Origin: Eubacterium sp.
Lineage (GTDB): Bacteria > Bacillota > Clostridia > Lachnospirales > Lachnospiraceae
NCBI GenBank assembly: GCA_017539165.1
Contig: JAFYHN010000079.1
Coordinates: 1 to 64,000, forward strand
Direction: 5' to 3'
Length of the DNA stretch: 64,000 nucleotides
Part shown: positions 32,168 to 56,538 of the stretch, piece after piece
How the letters are laid out: every line of letters begins with the position of its first letter
How positions within the stretch are numbered: the stretch's first letter is position 1
Notes under the pieces: model-generated
Told to the model about the DNA's origin: nothing
Database searches by the model: none
What the model saw: only the letters and a program-made list of their open reading frames with translations
Translations under genes and position numbers: made by a program

Positions 32168-32336
32168 ACTAGTATAGTGTTTCTTAATTAACTGGATTAT
32201 AAACGCAGAATGTTTTTCTGAGAGTGCAGTACCAAAAACGCAGGAATAGCGAGCTATTTCGAGGCTTTTGGTGCTGTGCTATTCAGAGAAACAGGCAAGT
32301 TATAGAGTCCAGTTAATTAGAAATCTCTATACTAGT
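32168..32336. repeat. 169-bp imperfect palindrome (MITE-like or structured RNA element)
   Basis: Terminal inverted repeats ACTAGTATAG and CTATACTAGT are perfect. Complementarity continues inward, e.g. AATTAACTGGA with TCCAGTTAATT, ACCAAAA with TTTTGGT, and GAATAGC with GCTATTTC at the centre near 32252. It overlaps the pilB stop codon (32332-32334). Transcribed from the pilB side it would form one long hairpin and could act as a terminator or attenuator. No transposase nearby. Confidence 0.65.
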
Positions 32337-35235: not shown

Positions 35236-36702
35236 TCAGTCTCTTCCAACTGACTCTGCCAGCGTACAGTTTACATGTATGTCGTACAGCCCCGTTCCGT
35301 CGTCATAGCTGTAACCTGTATGGTCTACTGTCATAAATATATCTTCCAAGAGAAGCTTGTCGATATACTTATATATATCATTTACATTTTCTGCTTTTGC
35401 CGAAAATGTAACCTTACCCTGTTCTGCATCGAAGCTCAATATCTCTATATCAGCATAACCCCTTGCCGTTTCTTCTATAGTTTCTATGACCTTATCATTG
35501 CAGACTGGATATGATTCGATAGTCTCAACCACTGTATTTATAGAATTGTACTTTGCAAGCATAGCATCACGTTTCTGAGTTGCCTCATCATAAGCCATAG
35601 CCTGCATCATAACCGAAGGACTGTTGTTATAATCCTTCGCTTCTTTATATTTCGCTTCACGTATCAGCCTTAATGTCAGCGCAACTCCCATCAGCACCAG
35701 CATTAAAACAAGCGTGGAAATGACAATCACTATCCTCTTCTTCGTACGAGGATCAAGTGTATTCTCACCTTCCTTCTTCATACTGAAGTTGGTAAGGAAG
35801 TTACTCTCACTACCCTGATCAAAGAGTCCGCTGACAGCAAACAGTGCTGTCTGAGATTCGTGTTCCAGCGTAGGATCTGCACTTAGTCCAGTATGAACCA
35901 GTTCACAGTTTGCCTCAACGCCGTGATCATGTACCACCTGATTGTACTGATTCAGATCATCACGAGTCGTTCCAGCTACATATATTCTTTCAACCGGAGA
36001 AGTGATCTTCTCGGTATTCATAAACTGTTCCAGCTGATTAAGAGAACGCGCCAGGTCATCCAGATATTCCATCGTTCCGGGCTCGTTGAAACAGCGGATC
36101 GAGTTATAATATCTGAACAAGCCGTCAACAAAGAGGACATTTGACACCAGATTACCATTAACAACCTGGAGGATAAATGTCTTAGAAAGCTTCGCAAGTG
36201 TCATCTGAGCATAACCGATGATACTTCCCTCACCGGAAATGATACCTTTAAGTGTCACTCCCATTCCGGCAAATATCTCTATGAATTCACGCAGCTGATC
36301 CTTCGGAGCAAGTTCAGCATAAAGTCGTCTGACCTTAGACTTCTTATCTGTACCTAACGAAGTAAATGCTATCGTGTTCTCAGCATCTTCACGCTGCATA
36401 TCCGAAAACTCACGCATGATAAATGCAAGAGTCTTCTTCGAATTCATGTTCGGAACCGACAGATTCTTTCCTGCTATTTTGTTGCTGTTAACAACCAGAT
36501 ATACATCCTTCTTCGGTATGGAATTCATTTCCCAGAAGCCCTTAATGTGAGAACCCAGAGAACCAGCATCCATAACTATACCATTTATGATGCTTCCTTC
36601 AGGCGCAATGGTAGTATATACCTTCTGGAGCTTTCCCTTGCGAGCTCTGGTACCGACCGCAATCTGGATTATCTGATTAGAAAAATATACGCTAACACTC
36701 AT
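35236..36702 (-). CDS. PilM-PilN fusion protein of the pilus platform
   Basis: 488 residues. Residues 1-300 match an actin-like PilM fold in size and style (MSVSVYFSNQIIQIAVG, then FILQVVNGNLVSNVLFVDG and VERIYVAGTTRDD). A transmembrane helix at about 331-352 (IVIVISTLVLMLVLMGVALTL) is followed by a coiled coil and a PilN-like extracellular domain (ADIEILSFDAEQGKVTFSAK, CTLAES). In most type IV systems the cytoplasmic PilM and membrane PilN are separate and bind through the PilN N-terminal tail; here they are one chain. It is 11 nt downstream of pilC. Confidence 0.8.
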   Translation of the reverse strand: MSVSVYFSNQIIQIAVGTRARKGKLQKVYTTIAPEGSIINGIVMDAGSLGSHIKGFWEMNSIPKKDVYLVVNSNKIAGKNLSVPNMNSKKTLAFIMREFSDMQREDAENTIAFTSLGTDKKSKVRRLYAELAPKDQLREFIEIFAGMGVTLKGIISGEGSIIGYAQMTLAKLSKTFILQVVNGNLVSNVLFVDGLFRYYNSIRCFNEPGTMEYLDDLARSLNQLEQFMNTEKITSPVERIYVAGTTRDDLNQYNQVVHDHGVEANCELVHTGLSADPTLEHESQTALFAVSGLFDQGSESNFLTNFSMKKEGENTLDPRTKKRIVIVISTLVLMLVLMGVALTLRLIREAKYKEAKDYNNSPSVMMQAMAYDEATQKRDAMLAKYNSINTVVETIESYPVCNDKVIETIEETARGYADIEILSFDAEQGKVTFSAKAENVNDIYKYIDKLLLEDIFMTVDHTGYSYDDGTGLYDIHVNCTLAESVGRD

Positions 36703-36713
36703 GTTACGTTACC

Positions 36714-37922
36714 TCATCCGCCTTGATTTGCAATACTCTGATAAGAGCCGTAGATAGGCTGAATAACAGCTATCATGATAAAGCCGACTATAACTGCCAT
36801 AACTACGATCATGATAGGTTCAACCATAGCTACAAGCTGTTCCAACGCTATCTCACTGTCGTAGTCCATCTGATCAGCTATGGACACAAGCATTGAATCA
36901 AGTGCACCCGTCTCCTCGCCGACCGATACAGATGATGGAAGCTTCTTAACAAAACCATCGATACTTGCAAGTCCCTCAGAGAGAGGCTTACCGGCTCTGA
37001 TGTCCGCTATCATCTGATCAAACTGACTTTCTATATATGTATTTCCTATTGTTGTTTTCGCTATCTGAAGGCATGTAACTATCGGAATACCTGCCGAGTA
37101 CATGCTGGCAAGAGTTCTCGCAAATCTTGCAGTATATATGATCTTCCTGAGTCCCCCGATCTTAGGAAGATGTATCTGCATCTTATCCATAAACAGCTTC
37201 ACTCTTGGAAGTGAAGTCAGAATCTTAAAGATCATGAAAAGCACAACTCCGCCAAGAATCAGGAGATACCATCTCTTGGATACAAATTCACTTATTCCCA
37301 TCAATATAGTCGTAGCTTTCGGCAGTTCCTCCATCTGAGCAAAGAGACTGTCAAACTGTGGAAGCACGAAGCCCATGATGATTATCACAACTATAACTAT
37401 CAGAACGCCAAGAATCTTTGGATACGTGGTCGAACTCTTTATCTTCTGCTGAAGCTTGTACTCCTTGCTGTAGTACTCAGCCATATTTGCAGCAGTGGAA
37501 TCCATATTTCCGCCCGACTCAGCACTTCGGATCATATTTACGAACAGTGTCGGAAATGTCCCTCCCTGTTCTTCCATCGCATCAGAAAGTGTCATACCAG
37601 ATCTGACAAGCTTCAAAACCTCAGCATATATCTTCCTCTCACTTTCCTTGATAGACTCATCCTCGGATATGATTCTGAGAGCCTTTACAAGAGTAACTCC
37701 CGCTCCAAGAAGCTTGCTTAGATTTCTGGAAAAATCAGCTACTCTGTCATATTTCAGCCTCTTAAAAGTCTGTTTACCCTTGGTAGCTTCCTTGGCCTCA
37801 ATCAGCAACAAGCCATCTGTTTTCAGTTTATTATGAAGTTCAGACTCATCAAGCGCCCTCTGAACACCTGAAACAACGTGTCCTTCAGAATCCTGAGCCT
37901 TGTACCTGTAGCTAACCGCCAT
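36714..37922 (-). CDS. pilC: Type IV pilus inner-membrane platform protein
   Basis: 402-residue GspF/PilC protein with two repeated cytoplasmic helical domains (DFSRNLSKLLGAGVTLVKAL, then ARFARTLASMYSAGIPIVTCL) and three transmembrane segments (about 170-192, 215-240 and 372-395). It couples the PilB motor to pilin insertion. The sequence and length are typical. Confidence 0.95.
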   Translation of the reverse strand: MAVSYRYKAQDSEGHVVSGVQRALDESELHNKLKTDGLLLIEAKEATKGKQTFKRLKYDRVADFSRNLSKLLGAGVTLVKALRIISEDESIKESERKIYAEVLKLVRSGMTLSDAMEEQGGTFPTLFVNMIRSAESGGNMDSTAANMAEYYSKEYKLQQKIKSSTTYPKILGVLIVIVVIIIMGFVLPQFDSLFAQMEELPKATTILMGISEFVSKRWYLLILGGVVLFMIFKILTSLPRVKLFMDKMQIHLPKIGGLRKIIYTARFARTLASMYSAGIPIVTCLQIAKTTIGNTYIESQFDQMIADIRAGKPLSEGLASIDGFVKKLPSSVSVGEETGALDSMLVSIADQMDYDSEIALEQLVAMVEPIMIVVMAVIVGFIMIAVIQPIYGSYQSIANQGG

Positions 37923-38025: not shown

Positions 38026-38436
38026 TCAACCAACTTGTTTTCTGATCCGATCATATACTATAAACAATACAACCGTAGCAACACACGATAAAACGAAGCA
38101 TAAAGCCGCCATAGGCTTGATACCGTATAAAAGTGTCCACAATACCGCCAGAAGGCCTCCTAGCGCCTCTACGACCGTATATCTGGGTGATATCGGTGCT
38201 TCACAGTATCTGCATTTTCCTTTAAGACTGATCCACGATATAATCGGGATCATATCTTTCATAAAAAGTTCATGTCCGCAAGTCGTACACATGGACTTTC
38301 CCAATGTGAACTGCATCTTTCGAGGCAGCCTGTATATGATGACATTTAAAAATGAAAATATACTCGCCCCGATTGCAAAGAATATAATCTCTATCAAAAC
38401 CCTAGCCGCTATTATAGAAATCTCAAGCCAGTCCAT
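38026..38436 (-). CDS. Prepilin peptidase reduced to the N-terminal methyltransferase-type half
   Basis: 136 residues matching only the first half of PilD. It has the N-terminal helix GASIFSFLNVIIYRLPRKM, the two CxxC pairs CTTCGHELFMKD and CRYCEAPISPRY, and PIISWISLKGKCRYC. After TVVEALGGLLAVLW it ends at FIVYDRIRKQVG, so at most the first catalytic Asp is kept. The GxGD motif and the remaining membrane helices are absent, and the 100 bp to pilC does not encode them. Full PilD proteins are about 220-280 residues. Either the peptidase half is elsewhere, another peptidase processes the seven prepilins here, or the gene is decaying. Confidence 0.82.
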   Translation of the reverse strand: MDWLEISIIAARVLIEIIFFAIGASIFSFLNVIIYRLPRKMQFTLGKSMCTTCGHELFMKDMIPIISWISLKGKCRYCEAPISPRYTVVEALGGLLAVLWTLLYGIKPMAALCFVLSCVATVVLFIVYDRIRKQVG

Positions 38437-39093: not shown

Positions 39094-39786
39094 TTAGTAA
39101 GTTCCAGGAACATTATACATCTTTACAAATCTATAATATTTGTAATCTCCATACTTTGGACTATTAATTGTCAATAAAACAGCTATTACACTTTTATCAA
39201 AACTTGAGACATCACCATCAATCCCGTACGATTCCATAATACTCTTGTTTGTCTGAAAAGACATTCCATCCCCTCGCACCAGCTTAAAATCAGTAATACT
39301 AAATCCATCATAAACATTTTTATCAAATCTCCATGTTGTGGACTTTCGATAAGAATCCGTTCCTTCAGTTCCATATCCTTCATATCTGATTTCCAAAAAG
39401 CCATTTTCATTAATCGATAAAGTCACTTTAGCATCTGTTTTATCTTTCAACTGAATTGTATTACCACATGTAACAGAATCAGATTCGCCTATTACCGGAT
39501 TATTGATCGTTCCAGGAACAAAAGCAGCCCCCGCATCATACTTAGCTCCTTCTATCTCAGATGAAACCTTTTCCAATATGATATCCGACACTTGATTTGC
39601 ATATGTCCTTCCCTTAACATCATAATACAGATTAACAATTTCCACGATAACAGAACCAGCACAGACCATAAAAATACCAATCAGTGCAAAACTGACTACC
39701 ATCTCAATTAATGTACTACCTGTATTACCCGAAATACATTTAATCGATGACATTATTTGATTACTGTGTTTTCTTCTTAGTTTCAT
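39094..39786 (-). CDS. Minor prepilin (PilW/GspJ-like size)
   Basis: 230 residues. Leader to SGNTG, cut before STLIEMVVSFALIGIFMVCA with Glu5, then a helix and a beta-rich head. The order after two other minor prepilins resembles the fimU-pilV-pilW-pilX sets that prime pilus assembly. The leader is long (about 23 residues) and basic. Start ATG follows GGTAGG. Confidence 0.8.
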   Translation of the reverse strand: MKLRRKHSNQIMSSIKCISGNTGSTLIEMVVSFALIGIFMVCAGSVIVEIVNLYYDVKGRTYANQVSDIILEKVSSEIEGAKYDAGAAFVPGTINNPVIGESDSVTCGNTIQLKDKTDAKVTLSINENGFLEIRYEGYGTEGTDSYRKSTTWRFDKNVYDGFSITDFKLVRGDGMSFQTNKSIMESYGIDGDVSSFDKSVIAVLLTINSPKYGDYKYYRFVKMYNVPGTY

Positions 39787-39802: not shown

Positions 39803-40282
39803 TTATTCTTCATAATCAAATAACAGTGCCTGTGGTGTAACTAATTTTTCATCCTCTATCATAGAGTTTACCGATGAATAGCTGTTCCCTTTTATATCAT
39901 ACAAACCTATTTTGAAGTTGGTATAATCCGTAGCGTTATCTTTTACATTATTATCTAACATTTTAGTATTTCCGGTATCCAACATAAGATAAAAAACAGG
40001 TCCAAGATTTTCATCGGTTTTTATTTCCCTTGCTGTTACCTCATCTGTATCTATTTTATCAATCGGCTTATATAGCTCTTCATTAAAGCTGCTAAATACT
40101 CTGTCAGTATCGATTGCCCTCATTTGTAAGCGATAACAATAATCAACCATACGCATAAGAATAGCCAGTATGATAACAAGCACCACAAAAGAAACCAATG
40201 TTTCAACCATCGTCGACCCGTTGTTGTTTCTAATTAGATGTTGAAGAGTTATTATGTTTTTCCGTCTCTTAAAACATTTCAT
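39803..40282 (-). CDS. Minor prepilin (PilV/GspI-like size)
   Basis: 159 residues. A basic leader ends NNNG before STMVETLVSFVVLVIILAIL (Glu5 present), followed by a helix RMVDYCYRLQMRAIDTD and a head of about 110 residues. ATG 40282 is preceded by GGTGAG at suitable spacing; a frame starting at 40294 is possible. Lies between the PilX-like and PilW-like genes. Confidence 0.78.
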   Translation of the reverse strand: MKCFKRRKNIITLQHLIRNNNGSTMVETLVSFVVLVIILAILMRMVDYCYRLQMRAIDTDRVFSSFNEELYKPIDKIDTDEVTAREIKTDENLGPVFYLMLDTGNTKMLDNNVKDNATDYTNFKIGLYDIKGNSYSSVNSMIEDEKLVTPQALLFDYEE

Positions 40283-40303
40283 AAGACTCACCATTCAAAT
40301 ATA

Positions 40304-41041
40304 CTATTCTCTCGAAATATGATTAATATTCCATCTCTCCATAGAATTTATATTCAAATTCATAGGATTATAAAGGCTTTTATTTTTATCCGTTCTAAAT
40401 GCATCTAATTTTTTTTTCATCCGTTGGTCTGAATCAATCTCCAACATCAGCTCAGATATACTAATTTCATATGTATCTTTTACAGTATATGACTGACTTC
40501 CTGTATCGCAAATAATCTCAATACAGAGTTCGATATTCGTTTTTTCAGAAATTGATAAACCTGATAAATCACGACCATTATAACTGGCTTCAGCCGGCGG
40601 AGTCCAATACATGCAAAGTGTAACATCTCCGGGAAATCCATCAATATCAATGCCATTTAAAGGATAATTTTTATTGTATTTTAATTTAAAATATCTGAAT
40701 GCATCATCCTCCGTATGTCCTGAATATTCAGAGTCATAATATGGCCATGTTTCATTTTGTAAGATATTGCATCTCAAATATTTCCACAACCAACTATTAT
40801 CAATTGCATCTTCAGCCGTAAGTTCTTTTTCAAGTGCAAGGCTCAAGCTATTAGCTGCAACAGAATTCCTCTCGCTAGCAGCTTTTTTATTTGAAGATGC
40901 ATAAAGGGTGTATGTAACCAACATAAGCGAAAATGTCATTATCATTAAAATAGCAATCATAATAATAGCAACGATCATGGTTGCACCATTATTATTTAAA
41001 TACTTATTTTTTATAAATATTTTTTTCTTCTTATTCTGCAT
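40304..41041 (-). CDS. PilX/GspK-like minor prepilin lacking Glu5
   Basis: 245 residues. Leader MQNKKKKIFIKNKYLNNNG, then ATMIVAIIMIAILMIMTFSL, with Val at mature position 5 where Glu is normal. Tip-initiating GspK and PilX proteins share that loss, so this is probably the first subunit of the pilus tip. The head is about 190 residues with a few Cys. Start uncertain: ATG 41041 gives a usual leader, while ATG 41098 overlaps the giant pilin's last codons. Confidence 0.72.
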   Translation of the reverse strand: MQNKKKKIFIKNKYLNNNGATMIVAIIMIAILMIMTFSLMLVTYTLYASSNKKAASERNSVAANSLSLALEKELTAEDAIDNSWLWKYLRCNILQNETWPYYDSEYSGHTEDDAFRYFKLKYNKNYPLNGIDIDGFPGDVTLCMYWTPPAEASYNGRDLSGLSISEKTNIELCIEIICDTGSQSYTVKDTYEISISELMLEIDSDQRMKKKLDAFRTDKNKSLYNPMNLNINSMERWNINHISRE

Positions 41042-41084
41042 ACTCCACACCCTGATAAATACATTTATCCTCACGCACCGTTCG

Positions 41085-44000
41085 TTATAGCAATTCATTT
41101 AATAATGGCGTAACAAGTTCCAGATATTTCTGATCTAATTCTTCATAAACATTCTTTCTATGTCTAGCTGTTTCATAAGGAGAATAGTCTATATAATAAT
41201 CAGCATAATCATATGGATTATGATTTAATTCACCTATACCAACTTCAAGTTTATGTATCATCAATTTATATGTCATAGAGGTTTCGTTCAAAACATAGAA
41301 AGCAGATTCAGCTTCAAACAGATCCGGATAAGCCCCATAATCCGATAATCTCCTTATCATGTCCAATATATCGGAGATATCCGCAAATGGATTAATCGGT
41401 AAAATATCATCCGTATCATGAGCTGCCGGAATATCAAAACTATTTTGTCCATTTTCTTTTATCTTGAAAGTACGTATTCCTACAGTATCTATTGTTTCAG
41501 AACCTTCTCCTGACACTTCACAAGAATCTAAAACTATTTCTATTTTGCTTATATTTTCAATAGAAAACTTATCAGGCTTATTAGAAATAGTGATACTTTT
41601 TCCATCTTGACTGATAGCAAATGAGTTTCTAAGTCCCGTCAGATCAAACACCGTTTCTTTTAATCCATCAGACGCAGATATCAATGTACTCACTATCGGA
41701 ATCTTTATAACCAGATCATTATCAGGAATATTATCATCTGTATTATTGTAGATCAAAATATGATAAACAATAGAATAATCACTGGTATTGTCAGGAAAAA
41801 CACAGTTATCCCAGACAATCGTAAATGCATCTACCGAGGTATTGGTATCCGGCAAAAACTGAATGTTTTTCACCGGTTGGATAACATACCTTAAATTAAC
41901 ATTATTATCATTTTTCCATTTTGCAGACCTCATATCTCCTTCTGTCATTGTAGAAGTAATATTATCATTCGTCTGATATGGACTAAGCATAGAAAAAGTA
42001 AGATCAACTTTTTCATCATCGGTTTCTTCCGCTGAACTAGCATCATATTCACGCCACACTTTAAATCTTTTTTCAGTATTATCTACTTCCTCTTCTCCAA
42101 AATAATAATTAGCAAATTTGTTTTCTGGCTTATCGGAAGCCTGATAAATCTCGCCTATATGCTTTCCAGAATTCGAAGCATCAAAACAAAAATGTATCTT
42201 TGATGCTTTATCTTTATTGATTCCGTAATACAATCCGGTTCCGTAATTTCGACACAATGTAATGATTCCTTTTTCACCGGGAACACTTACAATTCCGGCC
42301 ACCTTTGCTTGTTTTTTATTGTCCTCAGACATATTTACCGGATGAATTCCCTGCAAAGTAATAACTCCCGTATTTACGCAACCTTCTATACTCGAATAAA
42401 CGCTACTTTGCCCTAATATACCGGATGCACAACTATTATCACCCGCATTTACCGAGCCATGATTGATACAATCTTTAATTCTAAACTCCCCATTATCTTC
42501 TGCCAAATGAGACGGACTATCAACCACGCATATAATACCGGAAGCATTTCCGAAATCAGATTTAATCTCACCATAGTTTTCATTATTTTCTATATAAGTC
42601 TTATATCCCCCCTTATCACTACAAATAATTCCGGACGCTTGCGATGCTCCATTTATAACACCTTTATTTGTATTTTGGGCAAAATATGTGATTGAATCAT
42701 TGCTTATTCCACCATAATCCAATTCACCGACTATTCCGGAAGAAAAACCATCTCCCGATGAAATACTTCCTGAATTAATGCATTTGTATACAGCTGAACT
42801 TCCACCAATAGATACAACAATACCTGCTGAAGAAGATCCTCCACCATTTGTATTTATATCCCCCACATTCTGACAATACTTGATAACTCCGGTTGAACTA
42901 TTTGACACTTCTCCCTCTTCAAATATTATATTAGTATATTTTGTGCCATTAACACCTGCTATAGCGCCAACCATTATTCCATCGTATTGTCGGGAAGTAT
43001 CACACATTAAATACTGTGGTTCTATACTTCCTTCAACAACACCTTTTCCGGAAATAACTCCTGCATTTACTTCAGTAAGTCCGCCAAGATATGTTGCCTG
43101 AGATGAATAGAAATTAAAATTCGTACTATTTTCGTAGTATGTTCCTGTTTTTTCATTAATGCAGTTATATAGTTTCATTCCTGAAGAAACACGGCCAACT
43201 ACTCCACCAAGATATGAATATCTCACATCAACAGAATTGCCTAATGCTTCACCAACCATTGACTCACTAACAGAACCCTTTACACAGATACTTCCGTCAT
43301 TTTTAAATCCATCTATTGTTACATTTAATCCATTCGGAACATATCCAAACAGTCCTCCCGCAAAAAGATTAGATATAACACTTCCATTAAATGAAGGTTC
43401 AGATTCAGTATAATCCACTGAATTATCACTAAAACCAAGCTCTTTTTCTTCAGTTGATTTCACAAATATTCCCTGATTATTTATTCCATCGCTAGAAATA
43501 TCACCATTTACAACATTATTGAATACATCCTGATATCCTAGATATTGATTTTCAGACATCAACTTATTGTTAACCAACCAGTGCAAATTACTATTATTTG
43601 TTTTTCTATCCGGACTCAAAACGTAAAAATTCTCAATTTCCGGATCTATGGTATATAATCCCGCAATTCCTCCAGCAAAAATCTCCGCATTAATATCAAC
43701 ATTACTTCCCATCATAAATCCGGATTGCTTATCTGCTATATAGTTTGCATTATTTCCGCTTCCTCCCAGACAGCCTGCTACTCCGCCAACAAAGCATTTT
43801 CCACTTACATAAACATCATCCAGATCTATCTGAACTCCGGAAACACCTACAAATTTTGTTTCCTCAGAATCACATACTCCAACGTAGCCACCAACATAAG
43901 TAATTCCACGGACATCTAATACACCCTCCATTCCAACCGGATCGAAAGATATCGCTATGTCCTTTGACGTAGTAATAGATCCTGCAATGCCACCCACTGC

Positions 44001-47000
44001 ATTTCTTCCTCTGACCAAATAGTTTTCTTTGATCAATGATGACATGTATTCCGATGAAAGTCTTCCGGCTATTCCTCCAACACAGTCTCTTCCTATAACA
44101 AGCATTCCACTTGAATCATCACCGTCTTTGTACGGATGACAATTTTCAGCATAAGTACCATCTCTCAATGATGTTCCAAAAACACCACCTACATAGTCCT
44201 GTCCAAAGACTACCGCATCTACTTTTGAGCTATATTCCGAAGAAGTTCCATCAGTTTGTTTATTTACAAATCCCAAACCGGCTACATAGCCTGCAATTCC
44301 TCCTACAACGTTGCCTCCAAAATCTGATGCGCTTACTAAACGTTCAATATCTTCGGCTGTTGTTTCATAAAGATTTATGTCAGATCCAGCTATCAATCTC
44401 ATTTCAAATGCCTTTGTATCTTCAGACTGGATATTATCACACTCGATAAGACCTGATACATTCATTCCTACAATACCACCGCATATTCCGGTAAGTGAAA
44501 CACTATAATATACGTCTTTATATGACTTCTCACCGTCGTTTAGATCATCATCAGATTTCCAGCCATCGACTATTCCGTCTGCAAAAGCCTCATCTGAATG
44601 CAGACTAAGAACAGCTCCCTTATTAAGAGCTTTTCTCAAAATATTATAGCCATTATCTTCTGAAGGCTGCGTAGCAGGACCAGCAGAGTTTTCGGATGGT
44701 TCTCTAAATGAGAAAGTGTTTTTATTTATGTCACCAATACCATTTGCTCCGGCTATTCCTCCAACTATAAACCTTCCAATAACATTATTATAGTTAGTTA
44801 CAGCATAATCATTTGTCTCTGAAGATGAATCTTCACCATTTACGACATCGTATCTGCACAGATCAGAGCAACCGATTATTCCTCCAACATATCTGTTTCC
44901 AAATACAAATGACTTACTTACGCCATTTTCTATATCATCCGAATCAGGATTAACATTACAATTCTCTATAACCGCAAGTCTTCCATAACCAACAAGACCA
45001 CCTACATAGTTATCATTATTAATGGATGGATGCTCTTCTGTATCACCAAATTTATCAAATTCTGTCAAATCATATATAGCAAAACTACTACAAGATGATA
45101 TTTTTACTTTAGATTCAGATCCGTTAGTGAAGTTATCATATCCATCTAATACATTCACTCCGTTAGAGTTTAGAGAATCGTCATCATACATAAGTCCATC
45201 TATCAGACTACCTGCAATACCGCCAATAAATGATGACTTAATCTCACTTATTTTTCTGTCATCTATCTCCTCTTCACTCAGATCCTTATCGTTTGACAAG
45301 CCATAAACATATCCTCTATTAACACAATCCTCAAAAGAAACACTCTCGGCTCTGACTACATCTTCTCCGGACATAGACTTTCCATCATCAGTTATAGAGT
45401 AACCATCATGGTAGTATTTATACCTATCATATTCAGAAGAATCACTCTTAACATAATTAACATATGCACGTCCAGCTATACCACCGATATTTTCAATTCC
45501 CATTACTTCCGCATAATTTGTCAGATTCTTCAGTTTAACATCTTTTCCTGCAGTAGCAATCACAAAAGATTCTCGACCAAGAATACCTCCAACATCTGTT
45601 CTACCGGTTATTTTAGAAACATTAGCTTTCTTTGACTCTACACTATTTGTTTCATTATCAAGAAGCATTAATTTATCTAATTGACCAATATTATTACCGG
45701 TAAATCCCCCTACCATACATGTATACACAATTGAGTCTTTTATTTTCTCTACACCGTGTACAGTATGTCTATTGAGGTTTATATTTGATATCACTCCAAG
45801 GTTTTCTGCAAATAGTCCAAGTGGTAGTTTTCCTGCCCTTGATGGTTTTGATCCCGAAGAGTCATTTGTCTCAGATTTTAATCCTAAAACATATGAATAA
45901 TCCTCTTTTCCATTTAGTTCACACTGTTTTTTTACCGTCTTTCCATAAACACCATAAACTATGTTTGCAGAAACTGAAATATCTATATCGCTAATTGTAT
46001 ATGATTTTAAATCAGCGTCTTCATCAGATATCTCGCCATAAGCCAGTTCCTGTGTAAATGTATCCTTTTTATCCAGTTTTCTGAATCCTGGGAATGGATA
46101 TTTAGAAGTATCTAAATAATCCGAGCTTATTCCAACGATCCGAGTAGCATAAGATTTACCATCATAATTGATACCCGAAACCTTCGAGATATTATATGAA
46201 TTAAGAAAATAATTAATTCCTTCTGTATTATTACCAGTAAACTCTGCCCAAGACAGATCGTTTTGTAATTCAAATGTATTCTCTCTTGCAGGATCGATTT
46301 TATAATCAGTTTCATATCTGATATTATAAAAATGTCTAGGGTTCGTTATTACAATTTTGGCATCCTCATTCTTTTTTATATAACTTGAAAATGCCGCACA
46401 TTCATTATTGCTTCGGATTTCACGAGTTGTTGTATAATCAAACTTTTGAATCTGAATACCTGCAGAAATATAACGATTTGTTTCAGCGAAACCAAATCTA
46501 TAAAAACTAAATGTATTTCTAAAAGCTTCATCTTCAGCTATATCATATGTACCTGAAAACGCTTTTGTCATACTGTATGTTAAAGTTTCGGCCTGAACAT
46601 CAGCTGCATCAAAAATAACGTATATGGTATCATTTTGTTTCCAAACCGGTAAACGAAATGAGATTGATTGTTCTCCTTTATATATACCCTCAAGCATATT
46701 ACAGCTTACATCCAAAGGATTTTCCGAAGCTTTTCTTAATGCTTCACTATATAACATCGAACTATAATCGTTAATATCTTTATAGCCAACATTAAATGAC
46801 ATAATACAGTTCTGTCCCTGAGTACTTCCATCATATATTTTAAAAATCAAAGTATCTCCGTTTTTTAATTTTTCAGAATCTTTTGCCTTGTCTGTCAAAA
46901 CTAATGTAAGTGTTTCTTCATTTTTTAGTTCGACATCAAGTCTTGCGTTAACTTTATTTCCACCTTTTATCTTCTGAGCAAGTTCTTCAACACTGTAATA

Positions 47001-47735
47001 ACCAATCTTTTTACTTTCCCTTGTAGTGAGAGTTCGGTCATCTACTTTCAAGGAAGTATATCCTTCTTCAGCAACCTCGTTTTTATAAAGAAAAGTATCT
47101 ACATTATCAGAATAACAAACCGAAAAAACTTGTGCTGCTTCAGGAGAAAATTCTAATAGAATCGCACCATTTAATACTCCGGTATCAGAAATATAAGGTG
47201 TAACCAGATCAAATAAAACCTTAGCTCCCATTTTTGAGTAATCACTACCGGATATTAAAGATCCGTTCAAATATTTTTTATAGTCTCCCGCATCAGCTTT
47301 CAATCTGAGAATAGTACCTATTTCTTTTTCAGGATTCTGATTCAATTTCCAGACAGTATCCCATTTATATGTACTATTTGACCCATCAGACTGTGTAAAA
47401 GAAATCTGTTCTAAAATGGTCTTTGATAAAACTATGCTCGAATCATAGCTATTACCATCTGCACCAGTTTTCAATAATGGTTTTACAATTTTTGCATCCA
47501 AAGATCCACTTGAATCAAATTCAGTAAGCTGATTCTGAGCAGCAAAAAATATCTCTTCTGCCACAGCATTCTCATGCTTAAATCTAGACCAGTCATACCA
47601 TCCCAGACCGAATCCAATTGATATACTTAGAAGAATAGCCATAAGAACAAGCACAACAACAAGCTCCACCAGTGTGAAGCCTGAGTTATTGCTTTTTGGA
47701 TTTAATAATCTTTTAAACATTTTTTTCTTGTTCAT
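41085..47735 (-). CDS. Giant prepilin with GLUG-type repeat adhesin region
   Basis: 2216 residues. Class III leader MNKKKMFKRLLNPKSNNSG, then mature FTLVELVVVLVLMAILLSIS with Glu5, and a pilin helix up to about residue 70. A mixed region with two or more beta domains (about 75-650) precedes a long series of GLUG-type units (about 680-1820). At least fifteen carry cores such as VGGIAG, VGGIVG, AGGLFG or SGIVGE, each followed by Cys/Asn/Gly-rich turns and predicting a beta-solenoid. The C-terminal part (about 1830-2216) has beta-sandwich-like strands and ends without an anchor. Start ATG follows GAGGATG. The pilin N-terminus implies insertion into, or tipping of, the pilus; the solenoid would then be a surface-exposed adhesin. 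About ten times larger than a usual pilin. Confidence 0.88.
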   Translation of the reverse strand: MNKKKMFKRLLNPKSNNSGFTLVELVVVLVLMAILLSISIGFGLGWYDWSRFKHENAVAEEIFFAAQNQLTEFDSSGSLDAKIVKPLLKTGADGNSYDSSIVLSKTILEQISFTQSDGSNSTYKWDTVWKLNQNPEKEIGTILRLKADAGDYKKYLNGSLISGSDYSKMGAKVLFDLVTPYISDTGVLNGAILLEFSPEAAQVFSVCYSDNVDTFLYKNEVAEEGYTSLKVDDRTLTTRESKKIGYYSVEELAQKIKGGNKVNARLDVELKNEETLTLVLTDKAKDSEKLKNGDTLIFKIYDGSTQGQNCIMSFNVGYKDINDYSSMLYSEALRKASENPLDVSCNMLEGIYKGEQSISFRLPVWKQNDTIYVIFDAADVQAETLTYSMTKAFSGTYDIAEDEAFRNTFSFYRFGFAETNRYISAGIQIQKFDYTTTREIRSNNECAAFSSYIKKNEDAKIVITNPRHFYNIRYETDYKIDPARENTFELQNDLSWAEFTGNNTEGINYFLNSYNISKVSGINYDGKSYATRIVGISSDYLDTSKYPFPGFRKLDKKDTFTQELAYGEISDEDADLKSYTISDIDISVSANIVYGVYGKTVKKQCELNGKEDYSYVLGLKSETNDSSGSKPSRAGKLPLGLFAENLGVISNINLNRHTVHGVEKIKDSIVYTCMVGGFTGNNIGQLDKLMLLDNETNSVESKKANVSKITGRTDVGGILGRESFVIATAGKDVKLKNLTNYAEVMGIENIGGIAGRAYVNYVKSDSSEYDRYKYYHDGYSITDDGKSMSGEDVVRAESVSFEDCVNRGYVYGLSNDKDLSEEEIDDRKISEIKSSFIGGIAGSLIDGLMYDDDSLNSNGVNVLDGYDNFTNGSESKVKISSCSSFAIYDLTEFDKFGDTEEHPSINNDNYVGGLVGYGRLAVIENCNVNPDSDDIENGVSKSFVFGNRYVGGIIGCSDLCRYDVVNGEDSSSETNDYAVTNYNNVIGRFIVGGIAGANGIGDINKNTFSFREPSENSAGPATQPSEDNGYNILRKALNKGAVLSLHSDEAFADGIVDGWKSDDDLNDGEKSYKDVYYSVSLTGICGGIVGMNVSGLIECDNIQSEDTKAFEMRLIAGSDINLYETTAEDIERLVSASDFGGNVVGGIAGYVAGLGFVNKQTDGTSSEYSSKVDAVVFGQDYVGGVFGTSLRDGTYAENCHPYKDGDDSSGMLVIGRDCVGGIAGRLSSEYMSSLIKENYLVRGRNAVGGIAGSITTSKDIAISFDPVGMEGVLDVRGITYVGGYVGVCDSEETKFVGVSGVQIDLDDVYVSGKCFVGGVAGCLGGSGNNANYIADKQSGFMMGSNVDINAEIFAGGIAGLYTIDPEIENFYVLSPDRKTNNSNLHWLVNNKLMSENQYLGYQDVFNNVVNGDISSDGINNQGIFVKSTEEKELGFSDNSVDYTESEPSFNGSVISNLFAGGLFGYVPNGLNVTIDGFKNDGSICVKGSVSESMVGEALGNSVDVRYSYLGGVVGRVSSGMKLYNCINEKTGTYYENSTNFNFYSSQATYLGGLTEVNAGVISGKGVVEGSIEPQYLMCDTSRQYDGIMVGAIAGVNGTKYTNIIFEEGEVSNSSTGVIKYCQNVGDINTNGGGSSSAGIVVSIGGSSAVYKCINSGSISSGDGFSSGIVGELDYGGISNDSITYFAQNTNKGVINGASQASGIICSDKGGYKTYIENNENYGEIKSDFGNASGIICVVDSPSHLAEDNGEFRIKDCINHGSVNAGDNSCASGILGQSSVYSSIEGCVNTGVITLQGIHPVNMSEDNKKQAKVAGIVSVPGEKGIITLCRNYGTGLYYGINKDKASKIHFCFDASNSGKHIGEIYQASDKPENKFANYYFGEEEVDNTEKRFKVWREYDASSAEETDDEKVDLTFSMLSPYQTNDNITSTMTEGDMRSAKWKNDNNVNLRYVIQPVKNIQFLPDTNTSVDAFTIVWDNCVFPDNTSDYSIVYHILIYNNTDDNIPDNDLVIKIPIVSTLISASDGLKETVFDLTGLRNSFAISQDGKSITISNKPDKFSIENISKIEIVLDSCEVSGEGSETIDTVGIRTFKIKENGQNSFDIPAAHDTDDILPINPFADISDILDMIRRLSDYGAYPDLFEAESAFYVLNETSMTYKLMIHKLEVGIGELNHNPYDYADYYIDYSPYETARHRKNVYEELDQKYLELVTPLLNELL

Positions 47736-47762
47736 ATGGCATCCTCATAGTTATACAATATG

Positions 47763-50700
47763 TCAATCAATTTTAATAAGCGCCTTATTACTTCTATTAG
47801 ATAATGGAGAACCACCAATTTTATAGTGTTTTCCATCTGCAGATACACACTCTAATGTTTCAGAAAAATCTAATGTATTCCTACCTACAAAAATATTTGC
47901 CGCGCCATCACCATTAGGAGCGGTAAAAGCTATACCCGAATTTTCCAAATTCCATTGAGAAATCATATTATAAAATGCCGTTCTCGAAAATACAGTACAA
48001 TCCGTAAACATATTATTAAATGTTGTTACTTTACTCATATCTGTATTTTCAGGAAAAACAACAGTCTGAAGACTTGTACAACCATTAAACATGTAATTCA
48101 TTTTTGTGCATCCACTAATATCTGTAAATGTTATTTCTCCTGTATTTGGATTACTATAATCAGATATATCAAATGTTTCTAATCCAATTCTCAAACTAAA
48201 CATTTTTTCAAATGTGGTCACTGACGGTATTTGCCATCCTCTGGCATAAAAATACTTTAGATTATTGTCATTATTAAAAGCCGCCTGATTAATCGCTGTT
48301 ACTTTCTTCATTTCACACTTATCAAGTGTTATTTTTTCCAAATCAATACAATTATTAAACATTTTGCCAAAACCAGAAATCTTATTCATTTTTGTACCAG
48401 TAAAATCGATTTCTTGTATTGGTTCAGCAGCCAAATATGGATTATTTCTATCAGAATACTCATTTTCATATGTACTATAATTAAACATATTTGTGACATC
48501 AGTCAATGAATCAAAATTACAATCAACAAAGGATATTTTTTCCACCGAAGTTGCCATAAACATTTCTTTAGTACTAGTTACCTTTGAAAAATTCTTCCCT
48601 TTAAACTCTATTGACATACCATTAAGATTGGCACCCAAGAACATCCTCAAAACCGAAGTTGCTGAATCAAAATCAAATTCTTCATATAAAGGAATAATTG
48701 AGTTAAGACTATAGCACTGATAGAAAATATTTCTCATATCAGTAGCATATCGAGTATTTAATTTAGTTTTTATAGCACTTCTCCAATCATCTTCCTCGCC
48801 AAAAGAAACATTGTTTAAATGAGCGCAAAAATCAAAAAATTTATACATCTTTTTAGGATATAAAGTTGTTCCTTCAGCAAAGTTAAAATTCACTTCTTCT
48901 AAATAGAAACAATGGAAAAAGCAATTGTCGCAATCTACAAGAATAGGACTATCTGTCGGTCCAACTTTTGTACCTTCAAAAGAAACTTTTTTTAATTCAG
49001 GACAGTTATTAAATGTTCCCTTTAAAGTATTCAAACTACTCATATCAGCTTCACTAAAATCAACTACTTCTATAGACGCTTTACCATAATTTCCTTTTGA
49101 TCCATCTGGAAGTAACATTCCATCATAAAACTTTCTATCGAAAAAGGCCGGGAATCCAGTAGATTTTTTAACATTCCACCCCTTAGCATAAAAATACTTA
49201 AGTTTAATATCAGCATCCCCAAAGAAATTCTGATCAAATGTCCCTGAATATTTTGACATATCACAATAGCTAAAAGTTACAGTTTCAAGCATTGGACAAC
49301 TATTCATCAGTTTACTAACATTTGTGCAAGAACTTAAGTCAACCCCTTCAAAAGAAACAGTCTTTAATGAAGCACAATTATAAAACATTTGTTCTACTGA
49401 AATACAGCCACTCATGTTTGTTGTAGTTTCAGAATCATTCTTAACATATTTTCCAAAATCTACGTTTACAAGGTTTGTTCTACCTGAGAAAAATGTCTTA
49501 AAAGTCGTTATTTTTCTAATATCCCATCCTCTAGCTGAAAATATAGTAATATTATTTGAATCCGTTAACATATTAGATACATTTGTTACATTAGGCATTT
49601 TGCAATTATCTAGATTTATCTTTGTCAAACTCGGACAAGAACGGCACATTTCATCAATCCTCGTACAAGCTTCTAAGTTAATCCCTTCTAAAGAAACCTC
49701 TTTTAATTTTTCACACCCATAAAATACTTGATTAAATAATATGCAAGAACTAAAATCTGTCTTGTTATTTTCATCATAATCACAAAAACTTGCATACTCC
49801 AACGATTTTCTATTCTTTAATATTCCTTTAAGACTTGTAAGCTTTGGTGCATTCCAACCTTTTGCTGAAAATGATACCAGTGATTCTGTATTTCCCGTAT
49901 CAGTAGAGAAAAAGTATTCTACTTGTTCAAGTGATGGTGTTTTTATTCTATCAAAATTCACATTTGATAGCTTATCACAGTTTCTAAATAATTCATTGAA
50001 ATTCTTACAACTAGGTATTTCACAATTTGCAAAACTTATATTTTTAATATTATCACAATTTTTAAACATTCCGGTCATATACTCAACAGAGCTATAATCC
50101 CATTTTGTAAAATCAATCTGGTTATCTCCAAGCCCACTATTTTGAAACATATTACTCATATTTGTACACGATGATGTGTTCCAATCTTCCATATGAGAAT
50201 CAGTAAAATTAATAGTATAATAATCTTTGAATAAATACTGGAAGTTTCCTAAAAGTTCAGGATGTTCTTCTCGAGAAAACCAATAAACATGATATGTTTT
50301 TGAATCTGGTGATACTATATTATATGCAAATATAGGAATTGAATATGTTAAATCATTTCCATCCCATAAAATGGCTATATTCTTTATTATCCCCTCAGCT
50401 ACAGTTTTATTAACTGAAGAAACCATGCTATGAGCTGAGCCACAAGAAACAGCAGCATCGTTTGTTGTATCACTATCATCATATCCACTCATCAACATCT
50501 TAATAAGATCGTCGCCTGAACCGGCACTTCTTAAAAAGCTTACAGCTTCTGAATATGACTTTTTATGGAAAATCAGACTCACATCTGATTTATACCTTTT
50601 TCCACCAAACAAAGTATACACTTGTGTATAAAATGTATCAGATCCGGTTCCTTCAATAAACTTTGCTTTAGAACCATATTTAACCTTTGCAATATACGCA

Positions 50701-52322
50701 TAATCGCTTTCAGTTCCACTACGAACCACTTCCCATATTTCGTCTATGTTTCCATATGTTTTAGCAGGAAAAACATTGTATTCTTCCCATACGTCGAATC
50801 TAAAGCCTGATACTAATTCAAGAGGCTTGTTATCATAATCTCCAAAGTTATCTGTTATTTCAGCTTTGATTTCATCATACTCTTCTTTGAATTTCAGACT
50901 TTTGGCACCTTTAAATGATGAGCATCCTTTAGAATCAGCATATAAAGTAACATGTTTAACCTTCTTGGATATTCCAACAAATTGATATCCAGATAAAACT
51001 ATCCCCACCTCAGAATCTTCACCTGCGTCAATAGAAAAGACCTTCTGCCATATGTCAGCTTCTCCGGCATTGGCATCATATGGTATTAAATTATCGCCCG
51101 AATACTCATAGCCTAAAGAATCATAAAAGGCCCATTTGCTCACTTCATATCCTTCGTTAATAATAATATTTTTAACATCAGAAATAGTGCCATCACCCTT
51201 ATTAAGAATCTTGTTTCTATTATAATCATCACAATCATAATGATTTACATACTTTTTAAACGTAATAGGTAATGACGTTTCTCCATTTTTAAATCTAAAA
51301 GCAATTGAGCCATCCAAACATTTAAAATCTATAGTTCTTGATATGATTACTTTATCAGTAACAGCATATACATCAGTTATTCCATTACTACACAAGGATA
51401 TAATATTATCCTTTAGCGTACTATATGTATATAAATCTTCGTCTGTAGCATCATTCGGATTCTTTTTTGTACTCCATTTGAGATTTTTAAATCCATCTAC
51501 ATAACCAATCAAGTATGTCTTATCTTCATTTTTAATTTCATTTTCTGAAGTCCAATTTATTGCCCTTATTCCACCAGCATCATCTTTTTCAAATTCAACC
51601 GTTAACGTATCTTCGTTTGTCTCTATTCCATCATTATAAAACCTTATACCCGGTTCATTTTTTCCTTGAACACTATTATAATTATGGATCTTTAATGAAA
51701 ATACATCACCATTTTCATCAATTTTAGTCCATTGTTCTTCCTGTAATACTTTAGGATCATATGCATAATCTGATGGAGCCCCCGTCGTATAATCCGGCCA
51801 CATATATATAATATTATTCGAATCAATTTTGGCTCCAGCCTTAGTCATTGCATCATTTAAATCATCTTCCTCATCAAATACTTCCCAATTCTTTCCATCA
51901 TAAAAAACTGTCAATCCTGAACCGTCTGCTGAAGTTTCATATAATGCATAAATCAAAGTATATGAACCAATATTTTCTACAGTACTTGGTGTGATACCAT
52001 CCTTCAACTGTTTAGCTGTCCATACTTTAAATTTTGTACTATTTGCATCTACACCAGCCATTTCTGCTGCACTAAGTCTCTTATCATGATCAAGTTCGTT
52101 TGAGGCATTATTATATAAATCTGTCAACGCTCCCTGAGTAGCATTATATGCAGACTCAGCATCAGCAATATACTGTTTTTCTTTTGCATCATCTGAAAAA
52201 CCAAGCATGGCTGGTACAGCAATTCCTGCGATAATAGCCAAAACTACAAGCACGACAATAAGCTCCACCAGGGTGAAGCCTTTATCAGATGTCTTTGCAA
52301 TTCTATCTGATCTAAAGTCCAT
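47763..52322 (-). CDS. Giant prepilin with DUF285/BspA-type leucine-rich repeats
   Basis: 1519 residues. Leader MDFRSDRIAKTSDKG, then mature FTLVELIVVLVVLAIIAGIA with Glu5 and a pilin helix ending AESAYNATQGAL. Residues of about 90-690 are beta-rich and unassigned. From about 700 to 1450 runs a solenoid of about twenty DUF285-type units (CTNMSNMFQNS, VEYMTGMFKNC, CISVEQMFYNC, CTKMNYMFNGC). A higher-order repeat of about 120 residues is marked by four F/Y-x-A-K/R-GW signatures: FSAKGWNAPK, FSARGWDIRK, FYAKGWNVKK, FYARGWQIPS. Ribosome site GAGG before ATG 52322 and a promoter at 52418 make it the first gene of the prepilin operon. Such repeats bind host or microbial surfaces in other proteins; the ligand here is unknown. 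Confidence 0.88.
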   Translation of the reverse strand: MDFRSDRIAKTSDKGFTLVELIVVLVVLAIIAGIAVPAMLGFSDDAKEKQYIADAESAYNATQGALTDLYNNASNELDHDKRLSAAEMAGVDANSTKFKVWTAKQLKDGITPSTVENIGSYTLIYALYETSADGSGLTVFYDGKNWEVFDEEDDLNDAMTKAGAKIDSNNIIYMWPDYTTGAPSDYAYDPKVLQEEQWTKIDENGDVFSLKIHNYNSVQGKNEPGIRFYNDGIETNEDTLTVEFEKDDAGGIRAINWTSENEIKNEDKTYLIGYVDGFKNLKWSTKKNPNDATDEDLYTYSTLKDNIISLCSNGITDVYAVTDKVIISRTIDFKCLDGSIAFRFKNGETSLPITFKKYVNHYDCDDYNRNKILNKGDGTISDVKNIIINEGYEVSKWAFYDSLGYEYSGDNLIPYDANAGEADIWQKVFSIDAGEDSEVGIVLSGYQFVGISKKVKHVTLYADSKGCSSFKGAKSLKFKEEYDEIKAEITDNFGDYDNKPLELVSGFRFDVWEEYNVFPAKTYGNIDEIWEVVRSGTESDYAYIAKVKYGSKAKFIEGTGSDTFYTQVYTLFGGKRYKSDVSLIFHKKSYSEAVSFLRSAGSGDDLIKMLMSGYDDSDTTNDAAVSCGSAHSMVSSVNKTVAEGIIKNIAILWDGNDLTYSIPIFAYNIVSPDSKTYHVYWFSREEHPELLGNFQYLFKDYYTINFTDSHMEDWNTSSCTNMSNMFQNSGLGDNQIDFTKWDYSSVEYMTGMFKNCDNIKNISFANCEIPSCKNFNELFRNCDKLSNVNFDRIKTPSLEQVEYFFSTDTGNTESLVSFSAKGWNAPKLTSLKGILKNRKSLEYASFCDYDENNKTDFSSCILFNQVFYGCEKLKEVSLEGINLEACTRIDEMCRSCPSLTKINLDNCKMPNVTNVSNMLTDSNNITIFSARGWDIRKITTFKTFFSGRTNLVNVDFGKYVKNDSETTTNMSGCISVEQMFYNCASLKTVSFEGVDLSSCTNVSKLMNSCPMLETVTFSYCDMSKYSGTFDQNFFGDADIKLKYFYAKGWNVKKSTGFPAFFDRKFYDGMLLPDGSKGNYGKASIEVVDFSEADMSSLNTLKGTFNNCPELKKVSFEGTKVGPTDSPILVDCDNCFFHCFYLEEVNFNFAEGTTLYPKKMYKFFDFCAHLNNVSFGEEDDWRSAIKTKLNTRYATDMRNIFYQCYSLNSIIPLYEEFDFDSATSVLRMFLGANLNGMSIEFKGKNFSKVTSTKEMFMATSVEKISFVDCNFDSLTDVTNMFNYSTYENEYSDRNNPYLAAEPIQEIDFTGTKMNKISGFGKMFNNCIDLEKITLDKCEMKKVTAINQAAFNNDNNLKYFYARGWQIPSVTTFEKMFSLRIGLETFDISDYSNPNTGEITFTDISGCTKMNYMFNGCTSLQTVVFPENTDMSKVTTFNNMFTDCTVFSRTAFYNMISQWNLENSGIAFTAPNGDGAANIFVGRNTLDFSETLECVSADGKHYKIGGSPLSNRSNKALIKID

Positions 52323-54015: not shown

Positions 54016-54057
54016 AGCCATAACCCCTTCCAACTACTTCGTTTAGATTGACGTTTT

Positions 54058-56416: not shown

Positions 56417-56538
56417 AACTAATACCCACCTTTCGAAACATTTGATAAATTCGAAAAAACACAACAAATCTGCGTATAGATGTGCATAGCTCTCACCCTA
56501 ATTACATCTTTCAGATTTGCATAAACATATACGATGAC

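What the first reader, a model, noticed from the sequence alone, without database searches (positions are those of the whole stretch)
41085..52322. Two giant prepilins fuse a type IV pilin N-terminus to adhesin solenoids
Seen: residues 1-60 of both proteins are textbook class III prepilins (G|FTLVEL, Glu5), but the rest is 2156 residues of mainly GLUG-type repeats or 1459 residues of mainly DUF285/BspA-like repeats. Known: pilins are normally 100-250 residues, and didermic pili use separate PilY1-type tip adhesins. Inference: in this monoderm pilus the adhesin itself is a minor pilin carried at the tip or along the fibre, next to three normal minor prepilins. This is the best candidate for an undescribed system in the window.
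Basis: partly seen in the sequence, partly recalled or inferred. Interest (0 to 1): 0.88.

Follow-up and report, generated by a model that had tools for sequence, protein, structure and literature searches.

The report
Giant adhesin-bearing type IV pilins
Many gut bacteria of the Lachnospiraceae make enormous pilus subunits in which a normal-sized pilin carries a very long, probably sticky, repeat protein, and some related strains have exchanged the sticky part while keeping the pilin.

Summary
Confirmed: 41085-47735 (GIANT1, 2216 aa) and 47763-52322 (GIANT2, 1519 aa) are intact prepilins in a type IV pilus operon. It is not a misassembly: GIANT1 relatives occur in 10 of 149 other family genomes and in 30 of 61 genomes of the genus (own included), two of these on single contigs. 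GIANT1's pilin part is ~250 residues. Bare orthologues (189-237 aa) hold the same gene slot elsewhere; three of four aligned end at window residue 250-263, where a linker is predicted (252-263) and where similarity between two congeners breaks (255-256). Beyond lie an Ig-like domain and a GLUG-type beta-helix like that of IgA1-protease structures. GIANT1 is usually followed by three minor pilins, the first without Glu5, like a tip-priming set. GIANT2 has a DUF285 solenoid on a major-pilin-type module. Adhesive modular pilins are published (S. sanguinis PilB/PilC). New here: the size (1464-7662 aa), a fixed cassette, bare orthologues, and graft exchange; in one congener the graft and the three minor pilins were replaced together, leaving a broken relic of the old third gene. 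A new variant of modular pilins. Tip location, adhesion and ligand are inferred.

The parts
47763..52322 (-). GIANT2: 1519-aa prepilin, major-pilin-type module plus DUF285/BspA-like solenoid
51768..52280 (-). GIANT2 pilin module, residues ~15-185 (conserved stretch of the family alignment; first ~144 residues align to the 158-aa pilin)
47973..50243 (-). GIANT2 DUF285 solenoid region, residues ~694-1450
41085..47735 (-). GIANT1: 2216-aa prepilin, pilin module plus Ig-like domain plus GLUG-type beta-helix plus C-terminal part
46983..47735 (-). GIANT1 pilin module, residues 1-~251 (predicted helix 22-76, head 79-248)
46947..46982 (-). predicted flexible linker, residues 252-263; the break in similarity between two congeners maps to residue 255-256
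46386..46949 (-). [not shown]
43236..46001 (-). GLUG-type beta-helix, residues ~579-1500 (modelled only to 760; GG motifs at 675-1459)
40304..41098 (-). K-like minor pilin, 264 aa, prepilin-like N-terminus without Glu5
   Evidence: window and nine relatives; relatives
39803..40294 (-). I-like minor prepilin, 163 aa (weak ComGE match)
39094..39786 (-). J-like minor prepilin, 230 aa
38473..38937 (-). conserved 154-aa pil-operon protein, unknown function
38026..38436 (-). prepilin peptidase, methylase half only (A24_N)
36714..37922 (-). PilC platform protein (T2SSF)
35236..36702 (-). 488-aa conserved pil-operon protein, PilM/N-like by position only (no Pfam match)
34052..35131 (-). 359-aa conserved pil-operon protein, PilO-like by position only (no Pfam match)
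32332..34017 (-). PilB extension ATPase (T2SSE, MshEN)
31349..31825 (-). probable major pilin, 158 aa (major role inferred)

Best explanation
GIANT1 and GIANT2 are giant modular minor pilins of a monoderm type IV pilus. After prepilin processing they are polymerised through their normal-sized N-terminal pilin modules and display very long solenoid grafts outside the wall. GIANT1 takes an H-like place beside three small minor pilins (K-, I- and J-like, the K-like one lacking Glu5), and this set forms and primes the pilus tip. GIANT2, built on a major-pilin-type module, joins the same tip or the upper shaft. The grafts (Ig-like plus GLUG-type beta-helix; DUF285/BspA-like solenoid) act as the adhesins, doing the job of PilY1 in diderms. 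The graft, at times with K-I-J, is a replaceable unit that strains exchange by recombination while the pilin module and the machinery stay put. Shown by sequence or prediction: architecture, cassette, module boundary, size range, mosaic silent-site divergence, one relic of a replaced cassette. Inferred: processing, tip position, adhesion, ligand, physical contact of graft and K-I-J.
For: (1) Family: GIANT1 relatives in 10 of 149 other genomes of the family, prepilins of 1542-4429 aa, and in 30 of 61 of the genus, own included. (2) Slot: of 38 genomes with a K-sized K-like gene (47 of 397 had any match), 28 have a giant beside it, 26 directly upstream; 10 of the 28 had seeded the query. Two have a short orthologue there, 7 none recognised beside K, 1 is cut. 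(3) Bare orthologues of 189-237 aa followed by K occur in six genomes; of the four aligned, three end at window residue 250, 258 and 263, one at 219. (4) AlphaFold2: pilin helix 22-76, head 79-248, weak linker 252-263, then separate domains; mean pLDDT 81.7. (5) Glu5 of the giant is invariant in 29 of 29; K-like proteins lack Glu5 in 46 of 46 readable. (6) Congeners G012/G337: PilB, PilT-like, the pilin module and a gene downstream are 84-90% alike at four-fold sites, the graft 35-55%, K 55, I 34, J 53; change point at window residue 255-256. Right after its own J, G337 keeps a broken remnant 91-93% identical in DNA to G012's J, while the two working J genes share 69%: the old cassette's end left behind. 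(7) No second hydrophobic stretch in 11 of 13 giants, no LPxTG in 12 of 13. (8) GIANT2-type prepilins recur upstream of GIANT1.
Against: No experiment shows processing, assembly or adhesion. The H/I/J/K labels rest on Glu5, order and weak matches: profile searches of the PDB found general pilins for three of the four and no GspH/I/J/K for any, the gene order is H-K-I-J rather than H-I-J-K, and the head was not modelled alone. Some relatives have the trio before the giant, and 7 of 38 K-bearing genomes have no recognised giant or short orthologue beside K. The en bloc swap is seen in one of five close pairs; a second shows a mosaic inside the graft only, three show no sharp step. DUF285 and GLUG regions are adhesin-like by association, not by test.
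Confidence: 0.74

Rival explanations
1. The pilin helix serves only as a membrane anchor: the giants are prepilin-peptidase-processed surface proteins that stay in the membrane and cross the wall, without entering a filament.
For: A pilin helix can act as a transmembrane anchor (general knowledge); most giants tested have no LPxTG and no other hydrophobic segment; no proteomic data exist.
Against: Glu5, thought to serve assembly rather than anchoring (PMC10191384, passages), is invariant in 29 of 29; the head domain is conserved and exists alone in the same slot next to K.
Confidence: 0.13
2. The giants are distributed along the shaft as decorations, GIANT2 above all because its module is of major-pilin type, rather than at the tip.
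For: GIANT2's module aligns along residues 1-137 of the 158-aa pilin; system-specific minor pilins of Neisseria sit along the shaft (PMC10191384, passages).
Against: A 2000-residue graft on many shaft positions is sterically costly (inference); GIANT1's cassette with a Glu5-less K resembles the tip-priming set.
Confidence: 0.3
3. The system is a secretion pseudopilus or DNA-uptake pilus and the grafts are piston or DNA-binding parts rather than adhesins.
For: ATPase and platform are shared by all type IV filaments; a beta-solenoid minor pilin, ComZ, is thought to bind DNA in Thermus (PMC8179133, passages).
Against: Graft folds match surface-protein families and IgA1-protease entries; the graft is mosaic between some congeners, as expected of a part facing changing ligands or immunity. 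The genome was not searched for competence genes.
Confidence: 0.12
4. Artefact: a misassembly or frameshift joins a pilin to unrelated surface proteins.
For: The window's genome is a 112-contig assembly with 4% contamination.
Against: The same architecture in many independent assemblies, among them single 3.9 and 3.2 Mb contigs; one giant row (G027) lists a stop inside its matched stretch, and reads its frame as 3284 aa open.
Confidence: 0.01

Closest known systems
Modular pilins PilB and PilC of Streptococcus sanguinis (PMC8179133: passages and section 9; PMC9934059: passages)
   Same: Monoderm T4P; small pilin module plus a C-terminal adhesive module joined by a short linker; proposed tip complex with an I-like minor pilin; the authors list over 1,200 such proteins in 264 architectures.
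   Different: PilB is 454 residues with vWA, PilC carries a lectin. Here grafts are about 1,200-7,400 residues of mostly solenoid, four minor pilins recur as a cassette, and the graft (once with K-I-J) is mosaic between congeners. The multi-domain extreme named there is 860 residues.
HIJK minor-pilin tip complex and PilC/PilY1 of diderm T4aP (PMC10191384, PMC9934059; passages)
   Same: Four minor pilins, one without Glu5, thought to prime assembly and present an effector at the tip.
   Different: The effector is part of one of the four pilins instead of a separate PilY1; gene order H-K-I-J; homology to H, I, J, K not shown by sequence.
PilV of IncI plasmids with shufflon (shufflon recalled; PMC9045228 seen in the listing and start of abstract)
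   Same: A constant pilin part with exchangeable C-terminal adhesive parts.
   Different: Shufflons switch by a site-specific recombinase and inverted repeats. Here no evident repeat array is near (a recombinase was not sought), and the exchange looks like replacement between strains, with a relic left behind in one.
IgA1 proteases (M26 family)
   Different: No HExxH motif in 68 of 69 large prepilins scanned; the one match lies near the C-terminus of a relative (L081).
BspA-like / DUF285 surface proteins
   Same: Solenoid of GIANT2; DUF285 in 11 of 12 GIANT2-type proteins.
   Different: Usually carried by other signal peptides and anchors (recalled); here mounted on a pilin.

Membership tests
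Modular type IV pilin | Class III signal peptide (GFxxxE) at the N-terminus | tested here: met
   Pfam N_methyl over cut-off in both; in 11 of 11 GIANT1-type and 12 of 12 GIANT2-type members scanned
Modular type IV pilin | Pilin module: long alpha1 plus head | tested here: met
   GIANT1 model: helix 22-76, head 79-248; GIANT2 by alignment to the 158-aa pilin, not modelled
Modular type IV pilin | Extra domain not specific to pilus biology | tested here: met
   DUF285; beta-helix matching IgA1-protease entries
Modular type IV pilin | Subunit is assembled into the filament | not testable with these tools
   needs purified pili
Modular type IV pilin | Graft has a direct function such as adhesion | not testable with these tools
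   no binding data
HIJK tip complex | Cluster of four minor pilins next to pilB/pilC | tested here: met
   window operon; relatives where the stretch extends
HIJK tip complex | One subunit (K) lacks Glu5 | tested here: met
   window and nine relatives by eye; 0 of 46 readable K-like proteins of relatives have Glu5, 2 more unreadable
HIJK tip complex | Gene order H-I-J-K | tested here: not met
   giant-K-I-J in the window and most relatives; K-I-J-giant in a few
HIJK tip complex | Homology of each subunit to GspH/I/J/K | tested here: inconclusive
   profile searches of the PDB found no GspH/I/J/K for any of the four; weak ComGE match for I; module not folded alone
PilC/PilY1 adhesin | C-terminal beta-propeller domain (IPR008707) | tested here: not met
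   no such Pfam family at E<=0.1 in 11 GIANT1-type or 12 GIANT2-type proteins
M26 IgA1 protease | HExxH zinc-peptidase motif | tested here: not met
   of 69 large prepilin frames scanned, the two window proteins among them, one (L081) has the pattern
Shufflon PilV | Array of near-identical inverted repeats beside the pilin gene | tested here: inconclusive
   39 inverted pairs of 14 nt or more in 13 kb, the 25 longest shown; scattered, 14-29 nt, no shared repeat unit evident; no chance expectation computed
Shufflon PilV | Site-specific shufflon recombinase | not tested
   no search made

The most novel reading that the evidence does not exclude
Lachnospiraceae run an exchangeable-tip pilus: the pilin module of GIANT1 and the pilus machine are a fixed chassis, and the giant adhesin, with its three partner minor pilins, is swapped as one unit between strains by recombination with a breakpoint in the linker that joins pilin and graft. 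Grafts up to about 7,400 residues would make these the largest type IV pilins known to me, and would show that a monoderm T4P machine can pass, and a pilus tip can carry, a fibre-sized adhesin. (Probability raised from 0.40 to 0.45 after one search found the relic of a replaced J gene.)
Probability: 0.45. Interest if true: 0.82.

Novelty: new variant of a known kind. Interest (0 to 1): 0.67.

Why it matters
It gives monoderm gut bacteria a built-in counterpart of PilY1 and predicts where their pilus adhesins are. They are easy to miss: the pilin finder PilFind applies a length limit of 350 residues (PMC3244431, passages). It asks a concrete question of pilus biophysics: how is a subunit of roughly 160-800 kDa extracted from the membrane and lifted through a thick wall? 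The natural bare-pilin orthologues, giant orthologues and congeners with swapped grafts form a ready comparison set for what the graft does. In rumen and gut Clostridia, where type IV pili have been linked to cellulose binding (Ruminococcus; PMC3672088, passages), it bears on how cells may hold fibre or mucus.

Tried and rejected
Rejected: misassembly (many independent assemblies, two of them single-contig); catalytic IgA1 protease (no HExxH in 68 of 69); PilY1 (no propeller family); sortase anchoring (no LPxTG-type match in 12 of 13 giants; one internal LPGTG in a relative). Shufflon-type switching is not supported but not excluded.

Led nowhere: PDB profile searches to confirm H, I, J, K. 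Pfam gave nothing for the K-like protein. The fold comparison of the 1-760 model was filled by the Ig-like and beta-helix parts, so the pilin head is untested; no pilin appears in its list of 50, which is not evidence of absence. Structure of GIANT2 (A7) and of the GIANT1 pilin module alone (A11) could not be run: the queue was full at every try. Ten paper searches listed no description of giant solenoid pilins; I saw listings and starts of abstracts, several lists were capped far below the number of papers found (for example 25 of 2,308), the library is open-access PMC only, and the data set of PMC8179133 that lists modular pilins could not be opened.

Caveats on counts: nine genomes had only long-frame matches (496 aa or more) and were not inspected. 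In one search a stray row (a kinase-like ORF of 198 aa) entered the alignment by my filter and is ignored. In one search two cut frames were first labelled short; one search repeats the count without the ten cut rows for lengths. G152's short orthologue matched only the helix part and is not among the 36. Six duplicate modules were dropped. In one search the rule that reads position 5 is simple, so non-Glu readings for I and J may be misreadings.


Full report
WHAT IS THERE. On the minus strand, 52322-31349 reads as one pil cluster: GIANT2 (1519 aa), GIANT1 (2216 aa), three small proteins with pilin-like N-termini, a 154-aa protein, an A24_N protein, PilC, two conserved proteins, PilB and a 158-aa pilin. 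GIANT2 and GIANT1 are 27 bases apart, and GIANT1 overlaps the next ORF by 14. Both giants carry a class III prepilin motif with Glu5. In 11 of the 13 giants tested, the two window proteins among them, the only strongly hydrophobic stretch is the pilin helix; 12 of 13 have no LPxTG-type match.

NOT AN ARTEFACT, NOT RARE. With whole GIANT1 as query, 10 of 149 other genomes of the family have a relative, prepilins of 1542-4429 aa. With an alignment of the pilin module alone (A11: 17 rows from giants, 2 from short forms), 77 of 397 family genomes match at E<=1e-10, many over the helix only; 36 genes in 33 genomes match to model position 187 or beyond. Of these 34 have open frames of 1472 aa or more and two are short (226, 340). 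In the genus 30 of 61 genomes have it, own included (22 of 31 good ones), two on single contigs of 3.9 and 3.2 Mb; the former has the contig length of isolate AC2029. Outside the family it occurs in other Clostridia. The largest is a 7662-aa prepilin frame beside a pil locus in G179. Among 73 distinct modules 63 are complete: 54 giants of 1464-7662 aa (median 2807) and 9 of 189-501 aa, none between. The tree, weak at its deep forks, needs 7 changes between the two states, which suggests repeated gain or loss of grafts. The family is Lachnospiraceae: G120's contig has the length of that of Lachnospiraceae bacterium UBA3804.

THE CASSETTE. In the 10 relatives the giant is followed by three small genes; in 8 of 10 all three are recognised as relatives of 40304-41098, 39803-40294 and 39094-39786, in the other two partly and otherwise by position. 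Starting instead from the first small gene (K-like), 47 of 397 genomes match, 38 with a K-sized frame: 28 of 38 have a giant of the family beside it (26 upstream, two after J; ten of the 28 had seeded the query), 2 a short orthologue, 7 none recognised beside K, 1 cut. One of the 7, G179, has the 7662-aa giant elsewhere in the same pil locus. The K-like protein lacks Glu5 in 46 of 46 readable sequences of relatives, while I-like and J-like have it in 31 of 41 and 38 of 48 by a simple rule. A Glu5-less member is the signature of the minor-pilin set thought to prime the tip in other filaments (PMC9934059, PMC10191384; passages). The H, I, J and K names remain inferences: order differs and PDB profile searches did not find those subunits.

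WHERE PILIN ENDS AND GRAFT BEGINS. Three lines agree for GIANT1. Short orthologues: six of 189-237 aa are followed by K; of the four aligned, three end at window residues 250, 258 and 263 and one at 219. Structure: AlphaFold2 with 29 sequences gives a 55-residue helix (22-76), a head to 248, a low-confidence break at 252-263, then separate beta domains. Recombination: between congeners G012 and G337, residues before the change point are 96% identical and those after it, to 600, 59%. The change point maps to window residue 255-256, with 2dlnL 123 for residues and 160 for codons against maxima of 14.5 and 25.6 in 300 shuffles.

EXCHANGE. Four-fold degenerate sites in G012/G337 are alike at 85% (PilB), 90% (PilT-like) and 84-86% (giant codons 1-250), then 35-55% through the graft, 55, 34 and 53% in K, I and J, and 89% in a gene further downstream (1 kb after J in G337, 11 kb in G012). 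Silent sites change with the protein, so the block from the linker to J has another history: replacement rather than fast protein change. A direct footprint supports this. Right after its working J, G337 holds a remnant with an internal deletion and stops in every frame, 91-93% identical in DNA to G012's J, whereas the two working J genes share 69%; then the flank goes on at 89-95%. The resident cassette was thus of G012 type and its end was left behind. In the window's genus G160/G780 show 89-95% (codons 1-550), 38-46% (851-1450), 86-88% (1451-2050), and 90-93% in K-I-J, with PilC 72%: a mosaic inside the graft. Three other close pairs show no sharp step. So 2 of 5 close pairs are mosaic, one of them en bloc. 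G184 has two giants in tandem, 73-91% alike in the bins of the first 1,200 residues and 52-61% at 1501-2400. Over 210 genus pairs mean identity is 44% for the module, 33.5% for the graft, 35-40% for K, I and J and 71% for PilC, so the module too evolves faster than the machine.

HOW IT LIKELY WORKS. Inferred from the above: prepilin peptidase trims the leader, K, I, J and the pilin module of GIANT1 nucleate the filament, and the solenoid is carried out first, at the tip; GIANT2 follows or sits on the shaft. A monoderm has no outer-membrane secretin to pass (general knowledge), which may be why such sizes are tolerated. The grafts are the adhesins. Ligand unknown; plant fibre or mucus are plausible from the rumen and gut origin that many record titles suggest and from cellulose-linked pili of Ruminococcus (PMC3672088, passages).

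AGAINST THE KNOWN. Raynaud and colleagues defined modular pilins, with S. sanguinis PilB (vWA) as an adhesin, found over 1,200 such proteins in 264 architectures and named an 860-residue protein as the most extreme multi-domain case (PMC8179133, section 9). IPR026906, in their top 15, is from memory the LRR_5/BspA type, so a solenoid graft as such is probably not new. New here, as far as the ten searches reach, are the giant scale, the recurrent giant-K-I-J cassette with bare orthologues, the double-giant arrangement, and the exchange at the pilin-graft linker.

Noticed in passing
window 38026-38436 (-): The operon's prepilin peptidase is only the methylase half (A24_N, 136 aa); the single Peptidase_A24 match of the genome lies on another contig (C95:64320-64628) and by eye lacks the Cys-rich half. 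In the genus 17 of 19 such genes found are 133-160 aa, two are longer (291, 315): a split prepilin peptidase.
   Followed up: partly
G337 (L156, reverse strand, about 17110-17608): Broken remnant of a J gene of G012 type right behind the working J, a footprint of cassette replacement.
   Followed up: yes
G000:C70:112-131 kb (L186), outside the window: A second pil locus on the same contig with PilB, a PilT-like ATPase, PilC, three prepilins and a 1127-aa protein with a K-like N-terminus without Glu5; the window operon itself has no PilT.
   Followed up: partly
G179:C19 (L184-L185): A 7662-aa prepilin frame beside pilB/pilC, the largest seen here.
   Followed up: partly
window 59567-63769 (-): 1400-aa LRR_5 plus Big_2 surface protein near the operon; no prepilin motif match in Pfam.
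   Followed up: no
window 52582-54033 (-): GGDEF protein (weak Cache matches) next to the operon, a possible c-di-GMP link to the pilus.
   Followed up: no
window 55940-56467 (-): A further prepilin (175 aa) upstream of an ABC-transporter-like gene.
   Followed up: no
window 47634-47682 and 52233-52281: The helix-coding stretches of the two giants share 49 nt at 88%, a possible site for recombination between them.
   Followed up: no
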